NCBI GenBank assembly: GCA_014843695.1
Contig: CM026394.1
Location: 40,904,368-40,968,367, forward strand
DNA from: Archivesica marissinica
Taxonomy: Eukaryota > Mollusca > Bivalvia > Venerida > Vesicomyidae
DNA length: 64,000 nt
Direction of reading: 5' to 3'
A program made the translations under genes and the position numbers. Shown in pieces: positions 1,544 to 22,979 of this stretch (positions are counted from its first letter, which is position 1; the number at the start of each line of letters is the position of its first letter). Under the pieces are notes generated by a model. That model ran no database searches and was not told the DNA's origin. It worked only from the letters and a program-made list of their open reading frames with translations.

Positions 1544-1548
1544 TGATT

Positions 1549-1952: not shown

Positions 1953-2197
1953 TAAACTTATTTATTTTACAATGATTGAAAAGCAAGTTTTAACAACTTA
2001 TATTAATCACTCTCGTTGGCGTGGATGAAAGTGTAAATGTGGTCATTCGTGTGGGAGGACACCGGAGTACCAGGAGAAAACCCAACTGTCCGATCTGGCG
2101 ACCATCGTACCATCTCACATACATCACGGTTCGAGGATCGAACCCGGGTTGCATTAGTGAGAAGCGAGCGCGCTAACCAATGAGCTAATCGGACAGC
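1953..2197 (-). mobile_element. SINE family S2, full length
   Basis: On the minus strand the tRNA-like head reads GTCCGATTAGCTCATTGG with an A-box-like segment, and GGTTCGATCCTCG as the B box. The body contains CCTCCCACACGAATGACCAC, and the tail is GAGAGTGATTAATATAAGTTG followed by TAAAATAAATAA. An open frame on this copy is only the SINE body read through. Confidence 0.85.
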
Positions 2198-2519
2198 CAA
2201 ATTATGTAGAGGTCTGATATATAGGACTAGCTGCTCACCAGATACACACAGACTAGGAATGGATGGCAGATACCTGGGAAGGCCATTCCAAGGACGAATT
2301 ATTTAATGAACAAATTTAGGAAACTGAGTATTGTATTAGGTTTAGAAAACGATACATAGTAGGCTATGCATTTAAGATTACAGCAAAGTTGAGATGGTCT
2401 TTTTGCATTTAAGTTACTTCCTAGTTTATGTTTGTAACCCGAGTATATTCTAAAGTTTGAACAAGTGAATTTAGTATTTTAATCACATTGTTTAGTGACC
2501 ATTGGTTAAATCTCATACT

Positions 2520-2752
2520 GGCTGTCCGATTAGCGCAGTGGTTAGCGCGCTCGCTTCTCAACAATGCAACTGGACCGGGAAGTATGTGAGATGGTACGGT
2601 GGCTGCCAGATCGGACAGGTGGGTTTTCTGCTGGTACTCTGGTTTCCTCCCATACGAATGACCACATTTACCCTGTCATTCGCGCTAATGACAGTGATTA
2701 CTATAAGTTGTTGCAGCTTGTTTTGCAATCATTGTAAAATAAATAAAGTTTA
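2520..2752 (+). mobile_element. SINE family S2, B box damaged
   Basis: This copy starts at GTCCGATTAGCGCAGTGG and ends in TGTAAAATAAATAAAG. The T arm with the GGTTCGATCC B box is deleted, so Pol III transcription from this copy is unlikely. It stands head to head with the copy at 1953, about 320 bp away, giving an inverted pair. Confidence 0.83.
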
Positions 2753-2852
2753 AGCTGTTTTAGTTGTAAGAGGAAACATCAAATAAACATTGATATTATT
2801 GCATGGATTGGAAGGGGAAGATCAGCAATGCTTGTGCATGATAGAGATATGG

Positions 2853-3928
2853 ATGAAGGACTGAGCCTTGAGGAACATCAGAGAACAGGTAAGGTATATA
2901 TCAAGTGCAATACAGTCCTCAAGGACTGAGCCTTGAGGAACATCAGAGAACAGGTAAGATATATATGAAGGTGCAATACGGTCCTCAAGGACTGGGCCTT
3001 GAGGGACATCAGAGAACAGGTAAGGTATATATGAAGTGCAATACGGTCCTCAAGGACTGAGCCTTGAGGGACATCAGAGAACAGTAAGGTATATATGAAG
3101 TGCAATACGGTCCTCAAGGACTGAGCCTTGAGGGACATCAGAGAACAAGTAAGGTATATATCAAGTGCAATACGGTCCTCAAGGACTGAGTCTTGAGGAA
3201 CATCAGAGAACAAGTAAGGTATATATGAAGTGCAATACAGTCATCAAGGACTGAGCCTTGAGGAACATCAGCGAACAGTAAGGTATATATGAAGTGCAAT
3301 ACGGTCCTCAAGGACTGAGCCTTGAGGAACATCAGAGAACAGGTAAGGTATATATGAAGCGCAATACAGTCCTCAAGGACTGAGCCTTGAGGGACATCAG
3401 AGAACAAGTAAGGTATATATGAAGGTGCAATACAGTCATCAAGGACTGAGCCTTGAGGAACATCAGAGAACAGTAAGGTATATATGAAGTGCAATACGGT
3501 CCTCAAGGACTGAGCCTTGAGGAACAAAACAAAACCCCAATGCAATACGGTCCCAAACTGAGCCTTGGGACATCAGAGAACAGGTAAGGTATATATGAAG
3601 CGCAATACAGTCCTCAAGGACTGAGCCTTGAGGAACATCAGAGACTAGGTAAGGTATATATCAAGTGCAATACGGTCCTCAAGGACTGAGCCTTGAGGAA
3701 CATCAGAGAACAGGTAAGGTATATATGAAGCGCAATACGGTCCTCAAGGACTGAGCCTTGAGGAACATCAGAGAACAGGTAAGGTATATATGAAGGTGCA
3801 ATACGGTCCTCAAGGACTGAGCCTTGTAAGGTATATATGAAGTGCAATACGGTCTTCAAGGACTGAGCCTTGAGGAACATCAGAGAACAGGTAAGGTATA
3901 TATCAAGTGCAATACGGTCCCCTAAAGA
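2853..3928. repeat. Minisatellite, 63-65 bp unit
   Basis: About 17 tandem copies of a unit containing GGACTGAGCCTTGAGGAACA and CAGGTAAGGTATATATGAAG. Unit length varies by 1-2 bases, and two units near 3540 and 3825 carry internal deletions. The short minus-strand frames here only reflect the repeat. Confidence 0.95.
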
Positions 3929-4298
3929 CTAGATCCAACATGGTTCCAGAAAGTGGACCTGTCATAAGGAGCCATGATGTTTGAGATTATAATGTTTTCC
4001 ATTACTAGTAACTTGGAATTACTACAAGTGAGTTGTTGTTAGTGTAAAAACACGTTAGAAATTGTACTCTTTAAATAGTGACGTACATTTTGCGAAGTTA
4101 AAATTATCGATGTGCATTTACAATGTCATTTCTATATTGTAACATCGATGGTACCTTTTCGTTCATCCACGTCACTTTTGAATAGACTCAAATACAGTTA
4201 CTTCTCATATGTCCTTTTCGCTTAGAATAACCATTTGCCAAGCGATTTTTAACGACTGGTAAAGTGTATAGCCACTCGTTTACATGTTAAATGTTCTC
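3929..4298. other. Unassigned stretch
   Basis: I recognise no gene, RNA or repeat family between the minisatellite and the TTAA-flanked MITE. Confidence 0.5.
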
Positions 4299-4302
4299 TT
4301 AA

Positions 4303-4531
4303 CCCATTTCATTCTGGATACATTTAAAGGCTTTTGCAAACAACATAGATCCAGATCAGCCGCAGCGTGCTGATCAGGATCTATGTTGTTTGCTACATAG
4401 CCAAGTGTCTTAGCAAGATCATCTGAATAGCAAACAGCATAGAGCCTGGTCAGATGTAACATTCCGTGGCGGCTGATCTGCATCTATGTTCTTTGCAAAT
4501 ACTGTTTGAATGGTATCCAGAATGAAATGGG
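4303..4531. mobile_element. TTAA-flanked MITE, family A copy 1
   Basis: The element is 229 bp, flanked by TTAA on both sides (4299-4302 and 4532-4535). Its termini are inverted, CCCATTTCATTCTGGATAC against GTATCCAGAATGAAATGGG. Inside are smaller palindromes around GCAAACAACATAGATC. TTAA targets with CCC...GGG ends are characteristic of piggyBac-type transposons. It is non-coding, so it would have depended on a transposase supplied in trans. Confidence 0.85.
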
Positions 4532-4828
4532 TTAACATATCACCAACACAAGAATATTTAAGTTTCTCCCACTGGAACTAAATCAGATCTGTTAACAATC
4601 CATCAATTCTCTCGTTTGAAGACTACATACAGAGTTAAACAACAAATGTCTATTAAACTTTACATTTTATTGAAAATATCTAAAACTAAAAGAATCATTG
4701 TACAGGTTGATCGGTTATACAAAGATAAAAAATCTGAAAATCAGATGAAGATGCATGCAATAAATTAGTCACAAGGATATACGGTGTTTCGTCAGTGTGC
4801 GTTTGTGGATGCCACGCACATTGTTTAA

Positions 4829-5418
4829 CCCTTTCCTTCATAGAGATTTAGGTTCATATACTATTATATCGCCATACAAACGACAGCCATTTAGCTATCA
4901 TGCAGTGGATAAGTAGTCGCCATATCTATCGCACCTCCATAGATATTACTGGGACTTCATAGAGATTTAGGTTAATATACTATTATATCTCCATACAAAC
5001 GACAGCCATTTAGCTATCATGCAGTGGATAAGTAGTCGCCATACCTATCCCACCTCCATAGATATTACTGGGACTTCATAGAGATTTATGTTAATATACT
5101 ATAATAACTCCATACAAATGACAGCCATTTAGCAATCATGCTGCGGATAAGTAGTCACCATATCTATCCCACCTCCATAGGTATTACTGGGACTTCATAG
5201 AGATTTAGGTTAATATACTATTATATCTCCATACAAACTACAGCCATTTAGCTATCATGCAGCGGATAAGTAGTCGCCATATCTATCCCACCTCCGTATA
5301 TATTACTGGGACTACATTGAGATTCTGGCCTTTATTATGAACATTGGTTTCGCTACTACATTGTCAATGTATGTCGTATTGGTATTGGCATCAAGAGGTG
5401 CTTTTCTGAGGGAAAGGG
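4829..5418. mobile_element. TTAA-flanked MITE, family B copy 1, with internal tandem repeat
   Basis: The ends are CCCTTTCCTTC and GAGGGAAAGGG, flanked by TTAA at 4825-4828 and 5419-5422. The interior is about four tandem copies of a 119-bp unit (4837-5315) containing CAGCCATTTAGCTATCATGC. It is non-coding. Confidence 0.8.
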
Positions 5419-5462
5419 TTAATTGTAAAATATCACGCTACTTGAAATGAAAAATTGAGATA

Positions 5463-5892
5463 TAGTCAAACCTGTCTTAAGCAGCCATCCAAGGGAATCA
5501 CACATAGTGGCTACTTAGCACAGGTGGCTATTTAATAGAGGGCAATGTTGTTTGTTCTGGTTTTACGCCTTCATCAGTACCATTGTGGGCTATAGAGCCG
5601 ACGGGCAGTTGACCTAACAACATCTTTCATGGGCAGGCTACAGATGGTGCACCAACATCTGTAAGAAACTGACAACTTTTTCATGTACAGAAACAAGGTC
5701 TGAGTGGGGTTCGAACCCGTGATGATGGGTTACAGTGGTATACAAGTCAGCGACCGTAACCACTCCACCACGTAGGCGGTCTAGACAAATAGAGGGCAAA
5801 TGTATAATAAAATACCATTTTGGAATCTGGAAACTGGCTGCTTAATGCAGGTTGGGTGCTTTAAGGTGACCCGCTAACACATGCTTGACTGT
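5463..5892 (+). mobile_element. TA-flanked MITE, family C copy 1, interrupted by a SINE
   Basis: The element begins TATAGTCAAACCTGTCTTAA and ends GCTAACACATGCTTGACTGTA, imperfect inverted termini next to TA, which fits a Tc1/mariner-type target. It repeats GTGGCTGCTTAGCACAGGTG-like modules, which gives the family an internally redundant look. A SINE (5546-5787) sits inside. Without it the element would be about 175 bp, matching the other copies. Confidence 0.78.
5546..5787 (-). mobile_element. SINE family S4 nested in MITE C1
   Basis: This is an S4 copy with the second tail type (GGCGTAAAACCAGAACAAAC on the minus strand). The 12-bp sequence AATAGAGGGCAA occurs at 5534-5545 and again at 5788-5799, a perfect target-site duplication that fixes both ends. 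The insertion is younger than its host MITE. Confidence 0.9.
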
Positions 5893-6436
5893 ATAATCTA
5901 TGTTCATTGTTCGAATTATAACATTTTAGATTCCTATGCAGCACATAGCAGTAACTATATTATACATAGTTTATCTAAAGTACCATTCTTGGTTAGAACA
6001 TTACACCTGTTTACAATGAGAGCCATCACAAAGTATCTATTACCTCCCTTGTCAGATAAGTCTGATTTATCCCAAAATATAAATAGATAATTTTTGTTGG
6101 AATCCTTTGTTTTTACTGTTGTGCCCTAACCAGATGTTGCGGTATGGTAAATGGGATTTTATCAAAATTGCATTAATTAACTGATAACATTGTTTTACAA
6201 ATAAGTACTCATTGTGTATATACTGTAGGAGATCTGTCGAGCTATAGCAAATTAATAATTATAAGAAGCAATAGTGGAATAAAATTGCTAGCATGTTGTG
6301 CAAAGGAAACAACGATAATAACAAAGGAAAATACTTATTGGACCTATCTAGTATTATGGAATATTCACGGGCAGTAGTAACCGATGTCTGTTATTGCAAA
6401 ACAAGTATGTCTCTAACCAGCATTCAGGTCCCTTCT
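5893..6436. other. Unassigned stretch
   Basis: AT-rich sequence with no recognisable gene or family. I looked on the minus strand for the TLK exon expected after 17096 and did not find one. Confidence 0.5.
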
Positions 6437-9400
6437 GTGCAATATACAGATATAATACAAACATATGTGTGCAATATACAGATATAATACAAACACATGT
6501 GTGCAATATACAGATATAATACAAACATGTGTGCAATATACAGATATAATACAAACATGTGTGCAATATACAGATATAGTACAAACACATGTGTGCAATA
6601 TACAGATATAATACAAACACATGTGTGCAATATACAGATATAATACAAACACATGTGTGCAATATACAGATATAATACAAACACATGTGTGCAATATACA
6701 GATATAATACAAACACATGTGTGTAATATACAGATATAGTACAAACACATGTGTGTAATATACAGATACAATACAAACACATGTGTGCAATATACAGATA
6801 CAATACAAACACATGTGTGCAATATACAGATACAATACAAACACATGTGTGCAATATACAGATACAATACAAACTTATGTGTGCAATATACAGATATAGT
6901 ACAAACACATGTGTGCAATATACAGATATAATACAAACACATGTGTGCAATATACAGATATAATACAAACACATGTGTGCAATATACAGATATAATACAA
7001 ACACATGTGTGCAATATACAGATATAATACAAACACATGTGTGCAATATACAGATATAGTACAAACACATGTGTGCAATATACAGATACAATACAAACAC
7101 ATGTGTGCAATATACAGATATAATACAAACACATGTGTGCAATATACAGATATAATACAAACACATGTGTGCAATATACAGATATAGTACAAACACATGT
7201 GTGCAATATACAGATATAATACAAACACATGTGTGCAATATACAGATATAATACAAACACATGTGTGCAATATACAGATATAATACAAACACATGTGTGC
7301 AATATACAGATACAATACAAACACATGTGTGCAATATACAGATATAGTACAAACATGTGTGCAATATACAGATATAATACAAACATGTGTGCAATATACA
7401 GATATAATACAAACACATGTGTGCAATATACAGATACAATACAAACACATGTGTGCAATATACAGATATAGTACAAACACATGTGTGCAATATACAGATA
7501 TAGTACAAACATGTGTGCAATATACAGATATAGTACAAACATATGTGCAATATACAGATATAATACAAACAATTGTGCAATATACAGATATAATACAAAC
7601 ATGTGTGCAATATACAGATATAATACAAACACATGTGTGCAATATACAGATATAATACAAACATGTGTGCAATATACAGATATAATACAAACACATGTGT
7701 GCAATATACAGATATAATACAAACATGTGTGCAATATACAGATATAATACAAACATGTGTGCAATATACAGATATAATACAAACATGTGTGCAATATACA
7801 GATATAATACAAACATGTGTGCAATATACAGATATATACAAACATATGTGTGCAATATACAGATATAATACAAACACATGTGTGCAATATACAGATATAA
7901 TACAAACAATGTGTGCAATATACAGATATATACAAACATGTGTGCAATATACAGATATAATACAACACATGTGTGCAATATACAGATATAGTACAAACAC
8001 ATGTGTGCAATAACATACACATGTGTGCAATATACAGATATAATACAAACATGTGTGCAATATACAGATATAATACAAACATGTGTGCAATACAGATAAT
8101 ACAACCATGTGTGCAATATACAGATATAGTACAAACACATGTGTGCAATATACAGATATAATACAAACACATGTGTGCAATATACAGATATAATACAAAC
8201 ACATGTGTGCAATATACAGATATAATACAAACACATGTGTGCAATATACAGATATAATACAAACATATGTGTGCAATATACAGATATAATACAAACAATG
8301 TGTGCAATATACAGATATAATACAAACACATGTGTGCAATATACAGATATAGTACAAACACATGTGTGCAATATACAGATATAATACAAACATGTGTGCA
8401 ATATACAGATATAATACAAACATGTGTGCAATATACAGATATAATACAAACATGTGTGCAATATACAGATATAATACAAACATGTGTGCAATATACAGAT
8501 ATAGTACAAACATGTGTGCAATATACAGATATAATACAAACACATGTGTGCAATATACAGATATAATACAAACACATGTGTGCAATATACAGATATAATA
8601 CAAACAATGTGTGCAATATACAGATATAGTACAAACACATGTGTGCAATATACAGATATAATACAAACACATGTGTGCAATATACAGATATAATACAAAC
8701 ACATGTGTGCAATATACAGATATACAAACACATGTGTGCAATATACAGATATAGTACAAACACATGTGTGCAATATACAGATATAATACAAACACATGTG
8801 TGCAATATACAGATATAATACAAACCATGTGTGCAATATACAGATATAGTACAAACATGTGTGCAATATACAGATATAGTACAAACACATGTGTGCAATA
8901 TACAGATATAATACAAACACATGTGTGCAATATACAGATATAGTACAAACATGTGTGCAATATACAGATATAGTACAAACACATGTGTGCAATATACAGA
9001 TATAATACAAACACATGTGTGCAATATACAGATATAATACAAACATGTGTGCAATATACAGATATAGTACAAACACATGTGTGCAATATACAGATATAAT
9101 ACAAACACATGTGTGCAATATACAGATATAGTACAAACATGTGTGCAATATACAGATATAGTACAAACACATGTGTGCAATATACAGATATAATACAAAC
9201 ACATGTGTGCAATATACAGATATAATACAAACATGTGTGCAATATACAGATATAGTACAAACATATGTGTGCAATATACAGATATAATACAAACATATGT
9301 GCAATATACAGATATAGTACAAACATGTGTGCAATATACAGATATAGTACAAACATGTGTGCAATATACAGATATAGTACAAACATGTGTGCAATATACA

Positions 9401-10420
9401 GATATAATACAAACATGTGTGCAATATACAGATATAATACAAACACATGTGTGCAATATACAGATATAATACAAACATATGTGTGCAATATACAGATATA
9501 ATACAAACATGTGTGCAATATACAGATATAGTACAAACACATGTGTGCAATATACAGATATAATACAAACACATGTGTGCAATATACAGATATAGTACAA
9601 ACATGTGTGCAATATACAGATATAGTACAAACACATGTGTGCAATATACAGATATAATACAAACATATGTGCAATATACAGATATAGTACAAACATGTGT
9701 GCAATATACAGATATAGTACAAACATGTGTGCAATATACAGATATAGTACAAACATGTGTGCAATATACAGATATAATACAAACATGTGTGCAATATACA
9801 GATATAATACAAACACATGTGTGCAATATACAGATATAATACAAACACATGTGTGCAATATACAGATATAATACAAACACATGTGTGCAATATACAGATA
9901 TAATACAAACATGTGTGCAATATACAGATATAGTACAAACACATGTGTGCAATATACAGATATAATACAAACATGTGTGCAATATACAGATATAGTACAA
10001 ACATGTGTGCAATATACAGATATAGTACAAACATATGTGCAATATACAGATATAGTACAAACATGTGTGCAATATACAGATATAGTACAAACATGTGTGC
10101 AATATACAGATATAGTACAAACATGTGTGCAATATACAGATATAATACAAACATGTGTGCAATATACAGATATAATACAAACATATGTGTGCAATATACA
10201 GATATAATACAAACATATGTGTGCAATATACAGATATAATACAAACACATGTGTGCAATATACAGATATAGTACAAACACATGTGTGCAATATACAGATA
10301 CAATACAAACACATGTGTGCAATATACAGATATAATACAAACACATGTGTGTAATATACAGATACAATACAAACACATGTGTGCAATATACAGATACAAT
10401 ACAAACATATGTGTGCAATA
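6437..10420. repeat. Satellite A, left array (30/32-bp unit)
   Basis: About 128 tandem units run up to the first gap. The 32-bp form contains GTGTGCAATATACAGATATA then ATACAAACACAT. The 30-bp form lacks one CA, and 28-bp and damaged units also occur. ACACATGTGTGC is palindromic and alternates purine and pyrimidine. Blocks of 30- and 32-bp forms repeat at about 370 bp (compare 9203-9501 with 9573-9871), a higher-order pattern. All three minus-strand frames stay open because three 32-bp units make 96 bp without a stop; this is not coding. Confidence 0.97.
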
Positions 10421-11420
10421 NNNNNNNNNNNNNNNNNNNNNNNNNNNNNNNNNNNNNNNNNNNNNNNNNNNNNNNNNNNNNNNNNNNNNNNNNNNNNNNN
10501 NNNNNNNNNNNNNNNNNNNNNNNNNNNNNNNNNNNNNNNNNNNNNNNNNNNNNNNNNNNNNNNNNNNNNNNNNNNNNNNNNNNNNNNNNNNNNNNNNNNN
10601 NNNNNNNNNNNNNNNNNNNNNNNNNNNNNNNNNNNNNNNNNNNNNNNNNNNNNNNNNNNNNNNNNNNNNNNNNNNNNNNNNNNNNNNNNNNNNNNNNNNN
10701 NNNNNNNNNNNNNNNNNNNNNNNNNNNNNNNNNNNNNNNNNNNNNNNNNNNNNNNNNNNNNNNNNNNNNNNNNNNNNNNNNNNNNNNNNNNNNNNNNNNN
10801 NNNNNNNNNNNNNNNNNNNNNNNNNNNNNNNNNNNNNNNNNNNNNNNNNNNNNNNNNNNNNNNNNNNNNNNNNNNNNNNNNNNNNNNNNNNNNNNNNNNN
10901 NNNNNNNNNNNNNNNNNNNNNNNNNNNNNNNNNNNNNNNNNNNNNNNNNNNNNNNNNNNNNNNNNNNNNNNNNNNNNNNNNNNNNNNNNNNNNNNNNNNN
11001 NNNNNNNNNNNNNNNNNNNNNNNNNNNNNNNNNNNNNNNNNNNNNNNNNNNNNNNNNNNNNNNNNNNNNNNNNNNNNNNNNNNNNNNNNNNNNNNNNNNN
11101 NNNNNNNNNNNNNNNNNNNNNNNNNNNNNNNNNNNNNNNNNNNNNNNNNNNNNNNNNNNNNNNNNNNNNNNNNNNNNNNNNNNNNNNNNNNNNNNNNNNN
11201 NNNNNNNNNNNNNNNNNNNNNNNNNNNNNNNNNNNNNNNNNNNNNNNNNNNNNNNNNNNNNNNNNNNNNNNNNNNNNNNNNNNNNNNNNNNNNNNNNNNN
11301 NNNNNNNNNNNNNNNNNNNNNNNNNNNNNNNNNNNNNNNNNNNNNNNNNNNNNNNNNNNNNNNNNNNNNNNNNNNNNNNNNNNNNNNNNNNNNNNNNNNN
11401 NNNNNNNNNNNNNNNNNNNN
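10421..11420. other. Assembly gap, 1000 N
   Basis: Exactly 1000 N, so the size is probably a placeholder. It joins satellite A to satellite B, and the true length and content are unknown. Confidence 0.99.
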
Positions 11421-14400
11421 GTGGTGGTCTCTATTGGGAGGTGGTGGTCTCTATTGGGAGGTGGTGGTCTCTATTGGGAGGTGGTGGTCTCTATTGGGAG
11501 GTGGTGGTCTCTATTGGGAGGTGGTGGTCTCTATTGGGAGGTGGTGGTGTCTATTGGACGGTGGTGGCCTCTATTGGAAGGTGGTGGCCTCTATTGGGAG
11601 GTGGTGGTCTCTATTGGAAGGTGGTGGCCTCTATTGGGAGGTGATGGCCTCTATTGGAAGGTGGTGGCCTCTATTGGGAGGTGGTGGTGTCTATTGGGAG
11701 GTGGTGGTGTCTATTGGGAGGGGTGGTGTCTATTGGGAGGTGGTGGTGTCTATTGGAGGTGGTGGTGTCTATTGGGAGGTGGTGGTGTCTATTGGGAGGT
11801 TGGGCCTCTATGGGAGGTGGTGGTGTCTATTGGATGGTGGTGGTCTGTCTCTATTGGGAGGTGGTGGTTTTATTGGAGGTGGTGGTCTCTATTGGGAGGT
11901 GGTGGCGTCTATTGGAGGTGGTGGTCTCTATTGGGAGGTGGTGGCTCTATTGGAAGGTGGTGGCCTCATTGGGAGGTGGTGGCCTCTATTGGAAGGTGGT
12001 GGCCTCTATTGGGAGGTGGTGGTGTCTATTGGGAGGTGGTGGTGTCTATTGGGAGGTGGTGGTGTCTATTGGGAGGTGGTGGTGTCTATTGGGAGGTGGT
12101 GGCCTCTATTGGGAGGTGGTGGTGTCTATTGGATGGTGGTGGTCTCTATTGGGAGGTGGTGGCCTCTATTGGGAGGTGGTGGTGTCTATTGGACGGTGGT
12201 GGTGTCTATTGGGAGGGGTGGTCTCTATTGGGAGGTGGTGGCCTCTATTGGGAGGTGGTGGTGTCTATTGGACGGTGGTGGTCTCTATTGGGAGTGGTGG
12301 TCTCTATTGGGAGGTGGTGGTCTCTATTGGGAGGTGGTGGTCTCTATTGGGAGGTGGTGGCGTCTATTGGGAGGTGGTGGTCTCTATTGGGAGGTGGTGG
12401 TCTCTATTGGGAGGTGGTGGTGTCTATTGGAGGTGGTGGCCTCTATTGGGAGGTGGTGGTCTCTATTGGAAGGTGGTGGCCTCTATTGGGAGGTGGTGGC
12501 CTCTATTGGAAGGTGGTGGCCTCTATTGGGAGGTGGTGTGTCTATTGAGAGGTGGGGGTCTCTTGGGATGTGGTGGTGTCTATTGGGAGGTGGTGGTGTC
12601 TATTGGGAGGTGGTGGTCTCTATTGGAATGTGGTGGTGTCTATTGGGAGGTGGTGGTCTCTATTGGGAGGTGGTGGTATCTATTGGGAGGTGGTGGCCTC
12701 TATTGGGAGGTGGTGGTGTCTATTGGGAGGTGGTGGTGTCTATTGGGAGGTGGTGGTGTCTATTGGGAGGTGGTGGTCTCTATTGGAAGGTGGTGGCCTC
12801 TATTGGGTGGTGGTGGCCTCTATTGGATGGTGGTGGTCTCTATTGGGATGTGGTGGTCTCTATTGGGAGGGGGTGGCCTCTATTGGATGGTGGTGGTCTC
12901 TATTGGGATGCGGTGGTCTCTATTGGGTGGTGGTGGCCTCTATTGGGAGGTGGTGGTCTCTATTGGGAGGTGGTGGTCTCTATTGGGAGGTGGTGGCCTC
13001 TATTGGGTGGTGGTGGCCTCTATTGGGAGGTGGTGGCCTCTATTGGGAGGTGGTGGCCTCTATTGGGAGGTGGTGGTCTCTATTGGACGGTGGTGGTCTC
13101 TATTGGGAGGTGGTGGCCTCTATTGGGAGGTGGTGGCCTCTATTGGGAGGTGGTGGCCTCTATTGGGAGGTGGTGGTCTCTATTGGACGGTGGTGGTCTC
13201 TATTGGGAGGTGGTGGCCTCTATTGGAAGGTGGTGGCCTCTATTGGGAGGTGGTGGTCTCTATTGGAAGGTGGTGGCCTCTATTGGGAGGTGGTGGCCTC
13301 TATTGGAAGGTGGTGGCCTCTATTGGGATGTGGTGGCCTCTATTGGGATGTGGTGGTCTCTATTGGACGGTGGTGGTGTCTATTGGACGGTGGTGGTGTC
13401 TATTGGACGGTGGTGGTGTCTATTGGGAGGTGGTGGCCTCTATTGGGAGGTAGTGGTGTCTATTGGACGGTGGTGGTGTCTATTGGACGGTGGTGGTGTC
13501 TATTGGGAGGTGGTGGTCTCTATTGGGAGGTGGTGGTGTCTATTGGGATGTGGTGGCGTCTATTGGACGGTGGTGGTGTCTATTGGGAGGTGGTGGCGTC
13601 TATTGGGAGGTGGTGGTGTCTATTGGGAGGTGGTGTTGTCTATTGGGATGTGGTGGTGTCTATTGGACGGTGGTGGCGTCTATTGGGAGGTGGTGGTCTC
13701 TATTGGGAGGTAGTGGTCTCTATTGGGAGGTGGTGGTGTCTATTGGACGGTGGTGGTCTCTATTGGGAGGTGGTGGCCTCTATTGGGAGGTGGTGGCCTC
13801 TATTGGGAGGTGGTGGTGGTCTCTATTGGGAGGTGGTGGTCTCTATTGGGAGGTGGTGGTCTCTATTGGGAGGTGTGGTCTCTATTGGGAGGTGGTGGTC
13901 TCTATTGGGAGGTGGTGGTCTCTATTGGGAGGTGGTGGCGTCTATTGGGAGGTGGTGGTCTCTATTGGGAGGTGGTGGTCTCTATTGGGAGGTGGTGGTC
14001 TCTATTGGGAGGTGGTGGTGTCTATTGGACGGTGGTGGCCTGTATTGGGAGGTGGTGGCCTCTATTGGGAGGTGGTGGTGTCTATTGGACGGTGGTGGTC
14101 TCTATTGGACGGTGGTGGCGTCTATTGGGAGGTGGTGGTGTCTATTGGGAGGTGGTGGTCTCTATTGGGAGGTGGTGGTGTCTATTGGGAGGTGGTGTCT
14201 ATTGGAGGTGGTGGTGTCTATTGGACGGTGGTGGTGTCTATTGGACGGTGGTGGTGTCTATTGGACGGTGGTGGTCTCTATTGGAAGGTGGTGGTGTCTA
14301 TTGGGAGGTGGTGGTGTCTATTGGGAGGTGGTGTCTATTGGACGGTGGTGGTGTCTATTGGGAGGTGGTGTCTATTGGACGGTGGTGGTGTCTATTGGAC

Positions 14401-16055
14401 GGTGGTGGTGTCTATTGGAAGGTGGTGGTCTCTATTGGGAGGTGGTGGTCTCTATTGGGAGGTGGTGGTGTCTATTGGACGGTGGTGGTCTCTATTGGGA
14501 GGTGGTGGCCTCTATTGGACGGTGGTGGTCTCTATTGGACGGTGGTGGCGTCTATTGGGAGGTGGTGGTGTCTATTGGGAGGTGGTGGTCTCTATTGGGA
14601 GGTGGTGGTCTCTATTGGGAGGTGGTGGTGTCTATTGGGAGGTGGTGTCTATTGGACGGTGGTGGTGTCTATTGGACGGTGGTGGTCTCTATTGGAAGGT
14701 GGTGGTGTCTATTGGAGGTGGTGGTGTCTATTGGGAGGTGGTGTCTATTGGACGGTGGTGGTGTCTATTGGACGGTGGTGGTGTCTATTGGAAGGTGGTG
14801 GTCTCTATTGGGAGGCGGTGGTCTCTATTGGGAGGTGGTGGTGTCTATTGGACGGTGGTGGTCTCTATTGGGAGGTGGTGGCCTCTATTGGGAGGTGGTG
14901 ATGTCTATTGGACGGTGGTGGTGTCTATTGGGAGGTGGTGGTCTCTATTGGGAGGTGGTGGCGTCTATTGGGAGGTGGTGGCGTCTATTGGGAGGTGGTG
15001 GCGTCTATTGGGAGGTGGTGGTCTCTATTGGGAGGTGGTGGTCTCTATTGGGAGGTGGTGGTGTCTATTGGACGGTGGTGGCCTCTATTGGGAGGTGGTG
15101 GCCTCTATTGGGAGGTGGTGGTGTCTATTGGACGGTGGTGGTCTCTATTGGACGGTGGTGGCGTCTATTGGGAGGTGGTGGTGTCTATTGGGAGGTGGTG
15201 GTCTCTATTGGGAGGTGGTGGTGTCTATTGGGAGGTGGTGTCTATTGGACGGTGGTGGTGTCTATTGGACGGTGGTGGTGTCTATTGGACGGTGGTGGTC
15301 TCTATTGGAAGGTGGTGGTGTCTATTGGGAGGTGGTGGTGTCTATTAGGAGGTGGTGTCTATTGGACGGTGGTGGTGTCTATTGGACGGTGGTGGTCTCT
15401 ATTGGAAGGTGGTGGTGTCTATTGGAAGGTGGTGGCCTCTATTGGGAGGTGGTGGTCTCTATTGGGAGGTGGTGGTGTCTATTGGACGGTGGTGGCCTCT
15501 ATTGGGAGGTGGTGGCCTCTATTGGGAGGTGGTGGTGTCTATTGGACGGTGGTGGTCTCTATTGGACGGTGGTGGCGTCTATTGGGAGGTGGTGGTGTCT
15601 ATTGGGATGGTGGTGTCTATTGGACGGTGGTGGTGTCTATTGGACGGTGGTGGTGTCTATTGGAAGGTGGTGGTGTCTATTGGACAATGGTGGTGTCTAT
15701 TGGGAGGTGGTGGTCTCTATTGGGAGGTGGTGGTCTCTATTGGACGGTGGTGGTCTCTATTGGGAGGTGGTGGTCTCTATTGGGAGGTGGTGGTCTCGAT
15801 TGGGAGGTGGTGGTCTCTATTGGGAGGTGGTGGTCTCTATTGGACGGTGGTGGTCTCTATTGGACGGTGGTGGTCTCTATTGGGAGGTGGTGGTCTCTAT
15901 TGGGAGGTGGTGGTCTCTATTGGAAGGTGGTGGCGTCTATTGGGATGGTGGTGGTCTCTATTGGGAGGTGGTGGTCTCTATTGGGAGGTGGTGGTCTCTA
16001 TTGGGAGGTGGTGGTGTCTATTGGGAGGTGGTGGTGTCTATTGGACGGTGGTGGT
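11421..16055. repeat. Satellite B, G-rich 20-bp unit
   Basis: About 230 copies of GTGGTGGTCTCTATTGGGAG and close variants (GTGTCTATT, GCCTCTATT, GGAAG, GGACG). The plus strand is strongly G-rich and C-poor. Each unit carries four G runs (GGG, GG, GG, GG), so neighbouring units could form G-quadruplexes. All plus frames are open over long distances because 60 bp (three units) contains no stop; this is not a gene. Confidence 0.97.
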
Positions 16056-16186
16056 CTTTAGACATAGTATTGACAGTACTTCATTTCGGTATAACAAGCA
16101 TTAACAGGATATTCTCATATACAGGACACTATCCACTAAGCTTTCTGACAGCTAAGTCCTGGACTCAAACGGGGTATTCTCACATA

Positions 16187-17080
16187 CATAAACGTGGGAG
16201 AGACAGACATCTGTTACACTGGGATTGCTATACATATCTAGCTTTGCACGAACGTGGGCGAGACAGACATCACGTGGGAGAGACAGACATCACATGGGAG
16301 AGACAGACATCATGTGGGAGACAGACATCACATAGGAGAGACGGACATCACATAGGAGAGACGGACATCACGTGGGAGAGACGGACATCACGTGGGAGAC
16401 AGACATCACGTGGGAGAGATGGACATGACGTGGGAGAGACAGACATCACGTGGGAGAGACTGACATCATGTGGGAGAGACAGACATCACGTGGGAGAGAC
16501 AGACAACACGTGGGAGAGACAGACATCACGTGGGAGAGACAGACATCATGTGGGCGAGACAGACATCACATGGGAGAGACAGACATCACGTGGGAGAGAC
16601 GGACATCACGTGGGAGACCGACATCACGTGGGAGAGACAGATATCACGTGGGAGAGACAGACATCATGTGGGTGAGACAGACATCACGGGGAGAGACTGA
16701 CATCACGTGGGAGAGACTGACATCACGTGGGAGAGACAGACATCATGTGGGAGAGACAGACATCATGTGGGTGAGACAGACATCACGTGGGAGAGACTGA
16801 CATCACGTGGGAGACTGACATCACGTGGGAGAGACAGACATCATGTGGGAGAGACAGACATCGCATGGGAGAGACAGACATCATGTGGGAGAGACAGACA
16901 TCACATGGGAGAGACAGATATCACGTGGGAAAGGACAGACATCACGTGGGAGAGACAGACATCACGTGGGAGATACAGACATCACGTGGGCGAGACAGAC
17001 ATCACGTGGGAGAGACAGACATCACATGGGAGAGACAGACATCACGTGGGGGAGACAGACATCACGTAGGAGAGACAGAC
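16187..17080. repeat. Satellite C, 20-bp unit with CACGTG
   Basis: About 44 copies of AGAGACAGACATCACGTGGG. Many units contain CACGTG, the palindromic E-box that bHLH factors bind; others have CATGTG or CACATG. It shares the 20-bp period of satellite B but not its sequence, and ends about 16 bp from a TLK splice donor. The reading frames across it are shadows. Confidence 0.95.
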
Positions 17081-17095
17081 ATATGCAACACTTAC

Positions 17096-17183
17096 TACCA
17101 CTTCCATCATGATTGCTATCACTGTTAGTCGGTTTTCGTTTTCTCTTTCTCTCTGACGGAGTTCTCTTCTCCGGTGTGTGGGC
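17096..17183 (-). CDS. TLK: Tousled-like kinase, internal exon (TPEK / basic block)
   Basis: The exon is 88 nt. The upstream acceptor is CTTCCATTTGCAG and the downstream donor is GTAAGT. It enters in phase 0, directly continuing the exon at 19004, and leaves in phase 1. Its translation contains THTPEKRTPSERKRKRKP. Known TLKs carry a TPEKK...RKRK segment right after a GSLSDKE-like block, and RKRKRK would be a nuclear localisation signal. TLK is a nuclear serine/threonine kinase acting on the histone chaperone ASF1 in chromatin assembly. The next exon is not visible in the window, so the following intron must hold satellites C and B, the first gap and satellite A, or else the exon lies in the gap. 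A donor three bases earlier is possible but weaker. Confidence 0.82.
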
Positions 17184-17205
17184 CTGCAAATGGAAGACAT
17201 GGGTT

Positions 17206-17440
17206 AGTTTAGTTTATACAAATTTATCTTAGCTCGATTGTGAAACAAGTTCTTACAACTTATATTAATCACTCTTGAGACTTCATTCCTGATGAGGGAG
17301 AGAGAAGAGGCAACGTGGAATTTAAATGCCTTGCCCAAGGGCACAATCGTAACGGCTACAGCTGGGCTCGAGCCGTTACCACCTGAAGCTAACACGTTAC
17401 GACCAAGTGTATTACTTGAGGAAACCACCACCATAGTTCT
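17206..17440 (-). mobile_element. SINE family S3 in a TLK intron
   Basis: On the minus strand this copy has the S3 body (CCCTTGGGCAAGGC, CTTCTCTCTCCCTCATCAGG) and the tail TTAATATAAGTTGTAAGAAC followed by ATAAATTTGTATAAAC. The tail ends about 23 bp before the TLK acceptor at 17184, so the ACTAAACTAAC that could act as branch point lies at the SINE edge. The tRNA-like head is diverged. Confidence 0.75.
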
Positions 17441-17763
17441 GTAGTGTTTATTCTAGAGTGGAAAAAGGGGATAGTGTGGGTTAGAAAATTAGGAAGAGTG
17501 CATTTTGAGCTGCGATGACGTGCAGGGCGGTGTATTTTGGGGTTAGCCCCTAGAAATATTTTGCTAACGTACGGCGATTGATCACAGAGGCAGTAAGGCA
17601 GTACATATTGGTGAAACGGGCGGACGAGTTATAAGTTATATCGGGCTGCCCGCCCGAAGCATATGTCGCATATATATTTCCATAGTTTTCAGATACAAAT
17701 AAGAAAAACACATTAATGATTTGCAATCTGCTACAATTATTTCAACCATTTATAGCTTTTATT
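17441..17763 (-). other. TLK intron, unassigned part
   Basis: No exon, repeat family or RNA gene is recognised between the S3 SINE and the hAT-like element. Confidence 0.5.
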
Positions 17764-17771
17764 TTACCCAG

Positions 17772-18703
17772 GGTTCCTGCAGAATGAAAGTTGTGAAATT
17801 CAAGGCTATTTGTCCGCATTTCTCTCTCCCATTTTTCAAGGCCCAAAACTGCCAAATTTCAAGGCTTTTCAAGGCCCCTAGCTGACGCATGTATGTAATA
17901 CTGCGGCACTTATATATATATATAATAAAACAATTAATTATGACAATATTAGGTGATTTAAGCTAGGCCTTCAAAAACAGGCCTACTGATATTTTCACTA
18001 AAATAAACATTTTTTACGACAGCTTTGCTGGCAGTTTCCTGTTATGTTTATAATTAATCGGTCGATACATAAACCCTTGTACACATTTCGTCGCCCACAG
18101 AATCTCAGCTGATTGAATTTCTGATGCCTTTTCACTGCTACTGGGGACAGTCTCAAGATTGTTTAGAAGAACTTCCGAAGTTGATTTTCATGTTTTCATT
18201 TTGGTCCCCGACTACCATATTTGTGACACTGAAATTTTTCTGACAAGCCGTGCATCTCGTTGCATATAGATCACCCAGTACTGGCAACAGCCAGCCCATA
18301 TAATCGCTAGATTTCAGCCAATTCTGTTGGAAAGCACACTTCCCCATTTTGACACCAGTTTGGAAAGATGGCGGTCACCGCGATGTAAGTGAGCTTTTGA
18401 TTGGTGCAACAGACAGCAGCCTCTGCAACATTAGCCATTCCGATTTATATTTTAAGTGCGCATGCGTGCGACCTCATACAGTAAACTAAATGCGTTCACT
18501 CATTCACACTCCAATCGGCAGTTAGAGAATCACTACAATGCGCTGTAAAAAATATTAATAATTATGAATTTTGCAATCGTCGGCGATATTTCCCAAATTC
18601 GATACTATTCCAGGCTTCCGTTGAAATTATCAATTTTGCTCTCATCGCCTATATTGCCAAATTCCAGGCTTTTCCAGGAAATTCAAGGAGTGCAGGAATC
18701 CTG
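17772..18703 (-). mobile_element. hAT-like element relic
   Basis: The 8-bp repeat TTACCCAG flanks the element (17764-17771 and 18704-18711). The termini are inverted: (CA)GGGTTCCTGCA on the left and TGCAGGAATCCTG on the right. An 8-bp duplication and CAG-type ends are hAT hallmarks. Inside, on the minus strand, is a remnant of the transposase N-terminus. The length, about 930 bp, is far below an autonomous hAT (usually 2.5 kb or more), so this is an internal-deletion derivative. Confidence 0.72.
18050..18347 (-). pseudogene. hAT transposase N-terminal fragment with BED zinc finger
   Basis: An open frame from 18347 begins MGKCAFQQNWLKSSDYMGWL and continues RCTACQKNFSVTNM. A conserved Trp, a CxxC pair and the FS(V/L)xNM ending are typical of the BED-type finger that opens many hAT transposases. 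After a frame change, SAEILWATKCV (about 18110-18081) resembles the AEI.WALK.V segment that follows the finger in these proteins. The His pair of the finger is lost in the frame break. Nothing of the RNase H-like core remains. The family assignment rests on motifs only. Confidence 0.6.
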
Positions 18704-18711
18704 TTACCCAG

Positions 18712-18890
18712 CACGCAAAGAGTTAAATACAACATTTGAATAGAAGGTGTGCTTTACAATGGCCAGTGTAGCCAGCCTATTGTAGTTTGGAAAAAAAAAT
18801 TGGGGGGGGGGGAAGTGGAGCCCCCCAGGTAACGAAGTCACGGTACTTAGAGCGACTATTTAGCCCATGTCACGGTCTAGAATGAGCACT
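18712..18890. mobile_element. hAT-like MITE family D, partial
   Basis: The segment shares TTAAATACAACATTTGAATAG, a GGGGGCCCC/GAAGTCA-type middle and a final CTAGAATGAGCACTGG with the copies at 20420 and 23069. The left terminus is missing. It contains an A10/G12 homopolymer junction near 18790-18812. Confidence 0.55.
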
Positions 18891-19003
18891 GGGGATGTTA
18901 CTGTGTTGTTGGTGGTAGAGCGGCCTGATTTGTTATTGCTATGCGACGTCACAGTAGTGGTAAAGTTTTGAAAAGTGGCGTGTATAATTAAAAGCATACA
19001 CAC

Positions 19004-19180
19004 CTCTTGGTCCTCGCGATCCAATGAGCCGCCACTCATGTTACTGTTGCTCTCACCGGGGATCGGCACTTGTTGCGGCATATTCATTTGTTGCGCTACA
19101 TTCATTTGCTGCGATACATTCATTTGCTGCGGTACATTCATTTGCTGCGGTATATTCATTTGCTGCGGTAGATTTAATGG
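19004..19180 (-). CDS. TLK: Tousled-like kinase, exon with PQQMN repeat
   Basis: The exon is 177 nt, 59 codons, phase 0 at both ends. The acceptor is TGTTTCTAGTTTCAG and the donor is GAG|GTGTGTAT. The translation starts PLNLPQQMN, runs through PQQMNI, PQQMNV, SQQMNV, AQQMNM and PQQVPIP, and ends SNMSGGSLDREDQE. Vertebrate TLKs have, in this place, a short linker (GPLN...) followed by a Ser-rich GSLSDKE block, so both ends fit the family. The middle is a 15-bp coding repeat not known to me in vertebrate TLKs, likely disordered. The PQQMN frame is open further downstream, but the good donor and the in-phase fit with 17183 favour ending the exon at 19004. Confidence 0.8.
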
Positions 19181-19252
19181 CTGAAACTAGAAACACAATG
19201 CACATGCATCATACACCGACGACATTTATGCTTACAACTCAAGTAATGAGTG

Positions 19253-19350
19253 TACAGTCAAACCTGTCTTAAGTAGCCAACAAAGGGAACCACAGAAAGT
19301 AGCTGCTTAATAGAGGTCATTTGCATAATAAAACAAGGACAGCTATATAG
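19253..19350 (+). mobile_element. TA-flanked MITE family C, left half
   Basis: It starts TACAGTCAAACCTGTCTTAA and has the GTAGCTGCTTAATAGAGGTC module, but no right terminus before the next copy. Confidence 0.7.
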
Positions 19351-19386
19351 CTTTCTGACTAATTCCTTAATATTTTTTTTTGTAAA

Positions 19387-19569
19387 TACAGTCAAACATG
19401 TGTTAGTGGTCACCTCAATTAAACAGCCAACCTATATTAAGTAGCCAGTTTTCAGATTCCCAATATGTTGCTTTATTATACATTTGCCCTCTATTAATCA
19501 GCCAGCCTGTGCTATGCAGCCACTTTCTTTGATTCCCTTGGCTGGCTGCCTAACACAGGTTAGACTGTA
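19387..19569 (-). mobile_element. TA-flanked MITE family C, full copy
   Basis: At 183 bp, with TACAGTCAAACATGTGTTAG at one end and TAACACAGGTTAGACTGTA at the other, this is the cleanest full-length member. Confidence 0.8.
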
Positions 19570-19620
19570 ATCATGTACATGATAGACAATAACAATAAAT
19601 ATGATGTTTAAACTAATAAA

Positions 19621-19709
19621 CATATTGGAAATCAGGAAACTGGCTGCATAGCACAGGCTGGCTGCTTAATAGAGGCTGCTTGTTGACCACTAACACAGGT
19701 TTGACTGTA
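19621..19709 (+). mobile_element. TA-flanked MITE family C, right half
   Basis: It runs from TTGGAAATCAGGAAACTGGC to CTAACACAGGTTTGACTGTA. The left half is absent. Confidence 0.7.
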
Positions 19710-19754
19710 TTCTTAACTTAATGTGCTGCTCCATCATCATTATACAAACATACC

Positions 19755-19908
19755 TACAGTCAGGTTTGCCGTACGCAGCCAACCAATGGAATCACAGATA
19801 GTGGCTGCTTAGCACAGGTGGCTGACCAATAGATAGCAAAACAACATATTGGGAATCTAGAAACTGGCTGCTTAATAGAGGTGACTACTAACACAGGTTT
19901 GACTAAGT
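19755..19908 (+). mobile_element. TA-flanked MITE family C copy
   Basis: It runs from TACAGTCAGGTTTGCC to AACACAGGTTTGACTAAGTA. This is the fourth family member within about 650 bp of TLK intron. Confidence 0.72.
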
Positions 19909-19911
19909 ACA

Positions 19912-20062
19912 AACTTTATTTTACGACTGCGAAAAAGCTGTAACAATTTATATTAATCACTCTTGCTGGTGCGGATGAAAGCATATTTATGGTCATTCGT
20001 GTGTGTGGGGGGGGGGACGTGGGTACACGGAGAAAACCAACCTGTCTGTGATTTACAGAAAC
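19912..20062 (-). mobile_element. SINE family S2, head truncated
   Basis: Tail and body only (ATATTAATCACTCTTG, GTGGTCATTCGTGTGT), with a G10 run at about 20008. The tRNA-like head is lost. Confidence 0.75.
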
Positions 20063-20149
20063 AATCGTCTACTTTGGTCTAGTTAATTAGGTCAGGTCTA
20101 ATAAGCTTTCAAAGTTACATGTCTAGCAGGACTCATTCTAAGTCAGAAT

Positions 20150-20240
20150 GACCACATATACGCTTTCATCCGTGCCGACGAGAGTGATTAATATATGTTG
20201 TTAGAACTTGCTTCGCAATCGTAAAATAAATAAAAAGTTT
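20150..20240 (+). mobile_element. SINE family S2, 3' end only
   Basis: It runs from ATGACCACATATACGC to AATCGTAAAATAAATAAA. It faces away from the minus-strand copy at 19912. Confidence 0.75.
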
Positions 20241-20419
20241 AAACTTTTTAGGTCAGAATTTTTGGGAGAAGTGTGAAAGCGTGCAATTGCATCCTTAAAA
20301 TGCACATGCGGGTTAATGAAGATGAAACATATTTTGAGGATATTACAATATATTGCCTTCATGTGACTTTAGTATGGGTTCCGAGTAATCCTCCATTTTC
20401 ACCTAGCTACATATTGATT

Positions 20420-20697
20420 GCCAGGGTTCATTCTAGGTCAGAAATTTGGGGTGAAGTGAGAAAGCACGCGATCGCGTCCTTAACTGCTGTTATTTAATAA
20501 ATTCAACAAATATAGTTAAAATGCACAGTATGACCATTAAATACAACATCTGAATGCTTTATAATGAATGGGCCAGTGTATCTTACTGGACAAAATTCTG
20601 CATGAAAATTGTAAAAATTATTTTTTTAGGGACAAGTGGGGGCCCCAGAGGGCGAAGTCAGGGTCCCTAGGGTGACTATTTCGTGCACTAGAATGAG
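20420..20697. mobile_element. hAT-like MITE family D
   Basis: It begins CAGGGTTCATTCTAGGTCAG and ends CACTAGAATGAGCATTGG, imperfect inverted ends. The middle shares ACCATTAAATACAACATCTG and GGGCGAAGTCAGGGTC with the copies at 18712 and 23069. No coding capacity. Confidence 0.6.
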
Positions 20698-21104
20698 CAT
20701 TGGTCTAGTGATCGAAAAGAGTCGAGCCCCAATTTGATTATCGGGATACATGAAATATTATAACCAAACTGCCTGATACAGGACAGGAGAACAATTATCC
20801 GACACGAAGACGGTCGCTCACCAAATTGATTCCGGAAAACAATCAGTTCGTTTTAATGATAAAATCAGTGCTAACTCTTTCTGAGAATTGACTGCATGGA
20901 TAGTATTGATTATTAATTATACAGTAAAACCTATTTACCGGCAATAGGCACGTCGATATATGTTCATACACCCGTGTTGCTGGTAAATGACATTATGCTA
21001 ATTCATTTATAAAATAAGAAATAGCAGATTTCAGATTATGGCTTCCTGTCTTATGAGTGCTAAAAATAAAGCAATAAAAAATATATTTTTGACATTTTTA
21101 GTCA
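20698..21104 (-). other. TLK intron, unassigned part
   Basis: No exon, RNA or family match seen. Confidence 0.45.
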
Positions 21105-21180
21105 ATTAAAGGGCAATAACTCTGGTGTTACTGGGCAGATCTACATGAAAAGTACACATGCACCACCACACTATGTTATA
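21105..21180. repeat. Dispersed repeat with GGGCAATAACTCTGG, copy 1
   Basis: A segment of about 75 bp starting TTAAAGGGCAATAACTCTGG and containing GAAAAGTACACATGCACCAC. It recurs at 21620 and 22649. All three begin at a TTA(A) and two directly follow TTAA-flanked MITEs, so a MITE probably inserted at its TTAA. Confidence 0.7.
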
Positions 21181-21233
21181 CATATATTCAAGAGTTTTTA
21201 CTTTAAAAAAAATAATGTCTTAACCCTTTCCCT

Positions 21234-21619
21234 CAAAGAAGCACCTCTTGACACTATTACCAATACGACATACATTGACCCTTTCCCTCATAGAAGCACC
21301 TCTTGACACTATTACCAATACGACATACATTGACAATGTAGTAGCCAAGCCAAACCAATGTTCATAATAACGGCCAAAATCTCATGTAGTCCCAGTAATA
21401 TATATGGAGGTGGGATAGATATGGCGACTACTTATCCACTGCATGCTAGCTAAATGGCTGTCGTTTGTATGGAGATATAATAGTATATTAACCTAAATCT
21501 CTATGTAGTCCCAGTAATATCTATGTAGGTGGGATAGATATGGCGAATACTTATCCACTGCACGATAGCTAAATGACAATATAATAGTATATTAACCTAA
21601 ATCACTATGAAGGAAAGGG
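21234..21619. mobile_element. TTAA-flanked MITE, family B copy 2
   Basis: CCCTTTCCCTCAAAGAAGC and GAAGGAAAGGG ends with TTAA at 21230-21233 and 21620-21623. Relative to the copy at 4829 it is reversed. It carries a duplicated GAAGCACCTCTTGACACTAT module at its left end and about two of the 119-bp inner units. Confidence 0.8.
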
Positions 21620-21700
21620 TTAAAGGGCAATAACTCTGGTGTTACTGGGCAGATCTACATGAAAAGTACACATGCACCACCACACTATGTGATACATGTC
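21620..21700. repeat. Dispersed repeat with GGGCAATAACTCTGG, copy 2
   Basis: Nearly identical over about 75 bp to the segment at 21105. Together the two bracket MITE B2, so the local order is repeat, MITE, repeat. Confidence 0.7.
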
Positions 21701-22024
21701 AGTATAAATTCAGGAAACATTCAAATGATTAACTATAATATGTCTGGTGAAACAGTTTCAAAACCATTGATGACATTTCGACGGGATGTTGATCATTGAG
21801 ATACGGACGCCAATCCCCCCCCACCCACCAAGTGTTGTATGCATCATCTTGGTACAGTAGATTGCACATTTTGGGCATAGCTATTTCAAACTATGCTCTA
21901 TTATGCTGAGCGGTTTACAAGGTATGTAGCAGATACATGAAATCCGAACTGAGAAGTGGCGGGCGGTGGGTGGACAAATTTGTGAATATTTAGCTACTTA
22001 AACGACACACTCTGCCGTACTGGC
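21701..22024 (-). other. TLK intron, unassigned part
   Basis: No feature recognised; a short C-rich run lies near 21815. Confidence 0.45.
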
Positions 22025-22312
22025 CGGATCCCGTCGAAACTCTGGTGTTACTGGCCCGGTACCAGCGAAACTCTGGTGTTACTGGCCCGGTACCAGCGAA
22101 ACTCTGGTGTTACTGGCCCGGTACCAGCGAAACTCTGGTGTTACTGGCCCGGTACCAGCGAAACTCGGGTGTTACTGGCCCGGTACCAGCGAAACCCTGG
22201 TGTTACTGGCCCGGTACCAGCGAAACTCTGGTGTTACTGGCCCGGTACCAGCGAAACTCTGGTGTTACTTGCCCGGTACCAGCGAAACTCTGGTGTTACT
22301 GGCAAGATCCGG
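22025..22312. repeat. Minisatellite, 31-bp unit
   Basis: About nine copies containing CTCTGGTGTTACTGGCCCGG and TACCAGCGAA. The first 15 bases resemble ACTCTGGTGTTACTGG of the dispersed repeat at 21105 and 21620, so the array probably grew from that element. The frames crossing it are repeat shadows. Confidence 0.93.
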
Positions 22313-22419
22313 CCAAAAATCACGCGAGCACTGCCACAGTATGGTGATATTAAATCCCACACATTGGTTACTGAGAACAGGCTATGGACGGACGGTCAAA
22401 TTTGTGGATTTTTAATCAA

Positions 22420-22648
22420 CCCATTTGATTCTGGATACATTTAAATGCTTTTGCAAACAACATAGATCCAGATCAGCTGCAGCATGCTGATCAGGATCTA
22501 TGTTGTTTGCTACATAGCCAAGTGTCTTAGCAAGAACATCTGAATAGCAAACAGCATAGAGCCTGATCAGACGGCACGTTCCATGGCGGCTGATATGGCT
22601 CTATGTTCGTTGCAAATACTGTTTGAACGGTATCCAGAATCAAATGGG
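22420..22648. mobile_element. TTAA-flanked MITE, family A copy 2
   Basis: 229 bp, the same length as the copy at 4303, with CCCATTTGATTCTGGATAC and GTATCCAGAATCAAATGGG ends. The right flank is TTAA (22649-22652); the left is TCAA, one base changed. It shares the GCAAACAACATAGATCCAGA inner palindromes. Confidence 0.85.
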
Positions 22649-22725
22649 TTAAAGGGCAATAACTCTGGTTTTACTGGGCAGTTCAACATGATGCACGATG
22701 ACACTATGTGATACATATATTCATT
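22649..22725. repeat. Dispersed repeat with GGGCAATAACTCTGG, copy 3
   Basis: This diverged third copy (TTTTACTGGGCAGTTCAACA) starts exactly at the right flank of MITE A2. Confidence 0.6.
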
Positions 22726-22900
22726 CCATCCATTGGTTACCGAGAACTGGCTCCGGACGGACGCAGCCAAATCATTAATGATTATCCTCCGCCAAAATTG
22801 TAACAATTGATAGGAGGCACGCGCCGCACACGCCAAGTGCGCACACTAGCACCTAAAACTCTTGCACACTAGATCAAATCAGGGCAAAGACAACACTTAC

Positions 22901-22979
22901 CCTTCCGTAAAACCTGGCTTCCAACAATTCTTGCTTTCTCGGATCCAATCCACCCAGGTTAACATTGTCCATACTGCAA
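22901..22979 (-). CDS. TLK: Tousled-like kinase, first coding exon
   Basis: The acceptor is GTAGATATATTTCAG; 7 nt then precede the ATG at 22972. The 24 codons include GGLDPRKQELLEARFYGR, and the donor is GTAAGT (22900-22895). TLK1 and TLK2 have LDPRRQELLEARF at the same place near an initiator Met, a very specific match. The exon ends in phase 0 and the next exon (19180) opens in phase 0. Because an acceptor precedes it, at least one upstream non-coding or N-terminal exon should exist at higher coordinates. A second AG four bases before the ATG is an alternative acceptor. The intron to the next exon is about 3.7 kb and full of MITEs and SINE pieces. Confidence 0.85.

What the first reader, a model, noticed from the sequence alone, without database searches (positions are those of the whole stretch)
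17096..22979. Three phased minus-strand exons encode a Tousled-like kinase N-terminus
The exons at 22979-22901, 19180-19004 and 17183-17096 have good splice sites, join in phase 0/0, and give LDPRKQELLEARF, GGSLDRE and TPEK...RKRKRK in the order known from TLK1/TLK2. They are too short to stand out as open frames. The sequence shows the splice sites and phases; the TLK match comes from knowledge of the family.
Basis: partly seen in the sequence, partly recalled or inferred. Interest (0 to 1): 0.75.

Follow-up and report, generated by a model that had tools for sequence, protein, structure and literature searches.

The report
First exons of a clam kinase gene

Summary
The finding is real and the interpretation right. 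Three minus-strand exons, 22979-22901, 19186-19004 and 17183-17096, join without stop or frame break into the first 114 residues of a Tousled-like kinase (TLK). The best match is TLK2 of the venerid clam Ruditapes philippinarum (E 2e-33, 70% identity over 99% of the peptide), so the window is probably from a heterodont bivalve. The exons match that protein in order (50.8, 60.8 and 62.4 bits; best of 50 shuffled windows 27.7 bits). Exon 1 encodes the ASF1-docking helix solved in human TLK2 (PDB 7LO0), with five of six named contact residues kept and the sixth Lys instead of Arg. Exon 2 carries a small in-frame 18-base repeat expansion, not seen in the N-termini of 13 relatives. No further TLK exon was found in the window; where the kinase domain lies is untested, because the genome search did not complete, and assembly gaps in repeat arrays make its place uncertain. 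Ordinary; low interest.

The parts
22901..22979 (-). Exon 1 of the described part: ATG at 22972, 24 codons (MDNVNLGGLDPRKQELLEARFYGR), the presumed ASF1-docking helix; acceptor at 22979 (another AG 6 nt on, exon then from 22973; both lie before the ATG); donor gtaagt
19004..19186 (-). Exon 2, 61 codons (FQPLNLPQQ...GGSLDREDQE); corrected start 19186 (reader: 19180); donor gtgtgt
19070..19174 (-). In-frame 18-bp tandem repeat inside exon 2, 5.8 copies by TRF, five full MN-x-x-QQ units
17096..17183 (-). Exon 3, 29 codons + 1 nt (AHTPEKRTPSERKRKRKPTNSDSNHDGSG), basic cluster, probably a nuclear localisation signal (inference); donor gtaagt
19187..22900 (-). Intron 1, 3714 nt
   Evidence: from exon coordinates
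17184..19003 (-). Intron 2, 1820 nt
   Evidence: from exon coordinates
1..17095 (-). Start of intron 3, running to the window edge if the scaffold is right; 11007 of 16095 non-N bases are tandem arrays; contains the 1000-N gap 10421-11420

Best explanation
These are the first coding exons of the Tousled-like kinase gene of a heterodont bivalve. Shown: three exons that splice in frame and encode a peptide homologous over its whole length to the N-terminus of bivalve TLK2. Inferred from the human protein: exon 1 makes a short helix that sits in the histone-H3 groove of the chaperone ASF1 and so brings the kinase domain, encoded by later exons not found in the window, to the ASF1 tail; exon 2 is a flexible linker; exon 3 carries a basic nuclear-import signal. 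The linker exon has an in-frame 18-base repeat that lengthens it without breaking the frame.
For: Window peptide matches Ruditapes TLK2 isoform X2 E 2.0e-33, Mercenaria 3.0e-32, then Dreissena, Mactra, Mya (28 of 104 candidates at E up to 1). Three colinear tblastn matches; for P0126 they end exactly at or within 4 nt of the splice sites, and all three exceed the best of 50 shuffles. PDB 7LO0 TLK2 peptide aligns to residues 6-23. Human contacts Leu8, Arg11, Arg12, Leu16, Arg19, Phe20 (PMC8826447, section 9 read) correspond to L9, R12, K13, L17, R20, F21 here; only Arg12 is changed, to Lys, which is also the residue of histone H3 at the analogous place (Lys122).
Against: No exon after the third was found in the window, so the kinase domain is not shown. 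No expression data. Docking by this protein is inferred, not tested. Pfam gave no TLK model for this part.
Confidence: 0.93

Rival explanations
1. A partial duplicate or decaying copy of the 5' end of a TLK gene; the working gene is elsewhere.
For: Only the 5' exons are seen; the gap-free piece holding them (11421-55875) ends in tandem arrays on both sides, and no later exon was found in the 17 kb downstream.
Against: Frame intact over 343 coding bases, introns and AG/GT sites kept, 25 of 26 columns invariant among relatives kept. Long introns are usual in bivalves (recalled).
Confidence: 0.05
2. The gene is real but exon 2 starts at the reader's acceptor (19180), or both acceptors are used (not exclusive of the best explanation).
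For: tag|TTTCAG| is a pair of AG sites 6 nt apart, both in frame.
Against: 11 of 13 relatives have RFQPLN at this place.
Confidence: 0.15
3. Chance assembly of short open stretches with splice-like ends.
For: Each exon is short and does not stand out as an open frame.
Against: Best of 50 shuffled windows 27.7 bits against 50.8, 60.8 and 62.4; three matches in order on one strand.
Confidence: 0.001

Closest known systems
Bivalve TLK2 (Ruditapes philippinarum isoform X2 P0126; Mercenaria mercenaria P0127)
   Same: Start methionine, docking helix, SLDRE and HTPEKRTPSERKRKRKPTNSDSNHDGS segments, order; 87 and 88% identity to the window peptide as the alignment reports it (70% by BLASTP)
   Different: Gln instead of Ala at position 14; Ala instead of Val/Ile before HTPEK; five MN-x-x-QQ repeat units where no exact unit occurs in the first 190 residues of any of 13 relatives
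Human TLK2 N-terminal ASF1-docking peptide (PDB 7LO0; PMC8826447)
   Same: LDPR-x-QELLEARF helix; contact residues Leu8, Arg11, Leu16, Arg19, Phe20 kept
   Different: Arg12 is Lys, the residue of H3 at the analogous place (Lys122); ASF1 binding not tested here

Membership tests
Tousled-like kinase (TLK) | N-terminal ASF1-docking motif | tested here: met
   contacts from PMC8826447. Sequence only. The paper says that some animal orders lack the motif, so it is typical rather than strictly defining.
Tousled-like kinase (TLK) | Further N-terminal segments in family order (SLDRE, TPEK, basic cluster) | tested here: met
Tousled-like kinase (TLK) | PIP-box-like segment (KKINEYF in relatives) and coiled coils | tested here: inconclusive
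   Expected in later exons; not found in the window, which ends inside the next intron and holds an N gap there.
Tousled-like kinase (TLK) | TLK-type protein kinase domain | tested here: inconclusive
   Not found in the window; genome search not answered. The claim is therefore 'N-terminal exons of a TLK gene', not 'a complete TLK'.
Tousled-like kinase (TLK) | Phosphorylates ASF1 | not testable with these tools
   needs protein

The most novel reading that the evidence does not exclude
The 18-base repeat in exon 2 is a still-changing coding minisatellite that sets the length of the tether between the ASF1-docking helix and the rest of the kinase, so that individuals or close species carry kinases of different reach.
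Probability: 0.06. Interest if true: 0.4.

Novelty: new member of a known kind. Interest (0 to 1): 0.17.

Why it matters
It shows that a reader of raw sequence can find the three-exon start of a conserved gene whose exons are too short to stand out as open frames, and it gives exact coordinates (with one corrected splice site) for a gene model that may otherwise lose its 5' end in a repeat-rich region. Biologically it adds one more case in which the H3-mimicking ASF1 hook is kept in sequence in a bivalve. It opens no new question of weight.

Tried and rejected
Later TLK exons: regular expressions for recalled family motifs found only exon 1. tblastn of 13 long TLK proteins against the window gave nothing else convincing: the best match outside the three exons was 24.3 bits (P0133, 11996-11892, inside a tandem array), below the best of 50 shuffles (27.7); a 26.9-bit match of P0133 (19186-18881) covers exon 2 itself and runs on with gaps. 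Four next-exon queries against 1-17095 gave only weak matches; the best two, 21.2 bits (E 0.041) and 20.8 bits (E 0.056), lie in the 20-bp array and contain stops.

An upstream exon with the PPSW segment, which is present in P0137, P0140, P0122 and P0125 and recalled from human TLK1: no PPSW on the minus strand of the window. Pfam: only a sub-threshold Sigma70_r4 match, E 0.024, 14.6 against a cut-off of 24.1, rejected. Lys/Arg at the H3-Lys122 position: Arg in 120 of 120 rows listed (the best 120 of 1045 found, so the nearest to the human query), Lys in 32 of 33 rows, the one left (P0146) having no motif. This is biased because the two queries carried Arg and Lys respectively; no claim about evolution is made. 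P0146 matches the repeat (its start is rich in PQQM-type units) and is not taken as a TLK. A literature search for TLK in bivalves (listing only) showed 8 of 14,741 papers, each with 0 occurrences of 'tousled-like'; I make no claim that nothing is in print.

Rows not used: of the 28 hits, 13 served as tblastn and alignment queries (P0126-P0133, P0137, P0139, P0140, P0142, P0143; 11 carry names of mollusc species, P0128 and P0133 have no name). 15 were left out: close copies P0134 and P0135 of P0133 and P0144 and P0145 of P0143, rows with insect names (P0136, P0138, P0141, P0147-P0149, P0151-P0153), the unnamed P0150, and P0146. Genus-to-phylum assignments are recalled except Ruditapes, Mactra, Clunio and Phlebotomus, looked up.

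Full report
What was checked. The three exons exist as described. The corrected exon 2 is 19186-19004 and the peptide 114 residues.

Is it more than chance. tblastn of bivalve TLKs against the window gives three matches on the minus strand in protein order, for P0126 50.8 bits (22972-22901), 60.8 (19186-19001) and 62.4 (17186-17100). In 50 dinucleotide shuffles of the window (N removed) the best match to three TLK queries was 27.7 bits, the median of the best matches 22.7; in the reversed window it was 21.9. Matches to more distant relatives are weaker, down to 23.9 bits for exon 2 with P0140, which alone would not stand out.

What it is. The peptide alone, searched against 5.8 billion proteins, gave 5 matches among 10 short candidates (best E 2.9e-7), none with a Pfam domain or a TLK name; one is an uncharacterized protein of Arion vulgaris. 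As the scored region of a length-padded query it gave 28 matches among 104 candidates; the best are Ruditapes philippinarum TLK2 isoform X2 (2.0e-33, 70% identity, 99% coverage), Mercenaria mercenaria (3.0e-32), an unnamed protein (5.4e-31), Dreissena, Mactra and Mya. In the alignment Mercenaria is 88%, Ruditapes 87% and Mactra 81% identical. Ruditapes and Mactra belong to the order Venerida, Ruditapes to the Veneridae, so the window most likely comes from a heterodont bivalve near the Veneridae; this is inferred from one peptide. Of 26 N-terminal columns invariant among the 13 relatives the window keeps 25; the other is a gap beside the exon 1/2 junction. The only PDB match is the human TLK2 N-terminal peptide of 7LO0 (E 0.015, weak alone).

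How it works. Simon et al. (PMC8826447; abstract, sections 9, 11 and 12 and passages seen) showed for human TLK2 that residues 9-21 form a helix in the H3-binding groove of ASF1a, with contacts from Leu8 (seen in three chains), Arg11, Arg12, Leu16, Arg19 and Phe20, and that a docking-defective mutant is poor in ASF1 phosphorylation and does not restore colony growth. The window has Leu, Arg, Lys, Leu, Arg, Phe at these places; Lys replaces Arg12, and the paper gives H3 Lys122 as the analogue of Arg12. The paper states that the motif is widely conserved but absent from several animal orders, flies and annelids among them. That this clam protein docks on ASF1 is therefore inferred. Exon 3's RKRKRK is probably a nuclear-import signal (inference). 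A non-canonical PCNA-binding box is reported in the N-terminal part of human TLK1/2 (PMC11879137, passages seen); its likely counterpart in bivalves, KKINEYF (my assignment), follows in the relatives some ten residues after the part encoded here and would be in the next exon.

The one unusual detail. Exon 2 holds an 18-bp tandem repeat (19070-19174, 5.8 copies) that encodes MNIPQQ, MNVPQQ, MNVSQQ, MNVAQQ, MNMPQQ. No exact MN-x-x-QQ unit is present in the first 190 residues of any of 13 relatives, though Ruditapes has a related QQMNVMPQQV. Because the unit is a multiple of three it lengthens the linker without breaking the frame. The region varies in length and make-up among the relatives, so this is most simply drift of an unconstrained linker.

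Where the rest is. No later TLK exon was found in the window: not by recalled motifs, not by 13 long queries (best stray match 24.3 bits), not by four next-exon queries against 1-17095 (best E 0.041, in an array and with a stop). An exon hidden in the N gap cannot be excluded. Intron 3 is thus at least 17 kb if the scaffold is right and the gap holds no exon. The scaffold is uncertain: two runs of 1000 N (10421-11420, 55876-56875) bound the sequence that carries the exons, and on the far side of both runs lies the same 32-bp array with the same main unit variants (123 and 210 units). The middle piece could be set wrongly between two ends of one array. All three exons lie inside one gap-free piece, so the exon model does not depend on this, but the search for the kinase domain 'beyond the left edge' does.

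Verdict. Observation confirmed with two corrections, interpretation supported, a new member of a known kind and an ordinary gene start.

Noticed in passing
10421-11420 and 55876-56875: Two 1000-N gaps; the sequence outside both gaps is the same 32-bp tandem array (6436-10420 and 56876-63435) with shared main unit variants, so the piece 11421-55875 may be wrongly placed inside what is one array.
   Followed up: partly
whole window: Tandem arrays cover 28805 of 62000 non-N bases (from the TRF rows), with many different units (2-194 bp) side by side.
   Followed up: partly
16252-17082: A 20-bp array of 42 copies lies 13 nt beyond the end of exon 3, inside the intron; another 20-bp array with a different unit (11421-16057) follows.
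   Followed up: no
33266-34330 (+) and 36995-38042 (-): Reverse transcriptase domains (RVT_1, E 3.7e-31, 4.2e-08 and 3.1e-18), probably remains of LINE-type elements upstream of the TLK exons; the second is split over two frames.
   Followed up: partly
22972-22901, position 13 of the peptide: Lys at the place of TLK2 Arg12, as in histone H3 (Lys122); Lys in 32 of 33 rows found with the window peptide, Arg in 120 of 120 listed rows found with the human one (the queries bias this).
   Followed up: partly
related proteins P0147, P0149 (also P0148, P0151): PMC8826447 says the docking motif is absent from flies, yet the TLKs of the dipterans Phlebotomus argentipes and Clunio marinus (taxonomy) carry DPRKQELLEARF near the N-terminus; the loss is then not common to all Diptera.
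   Followed up: partly
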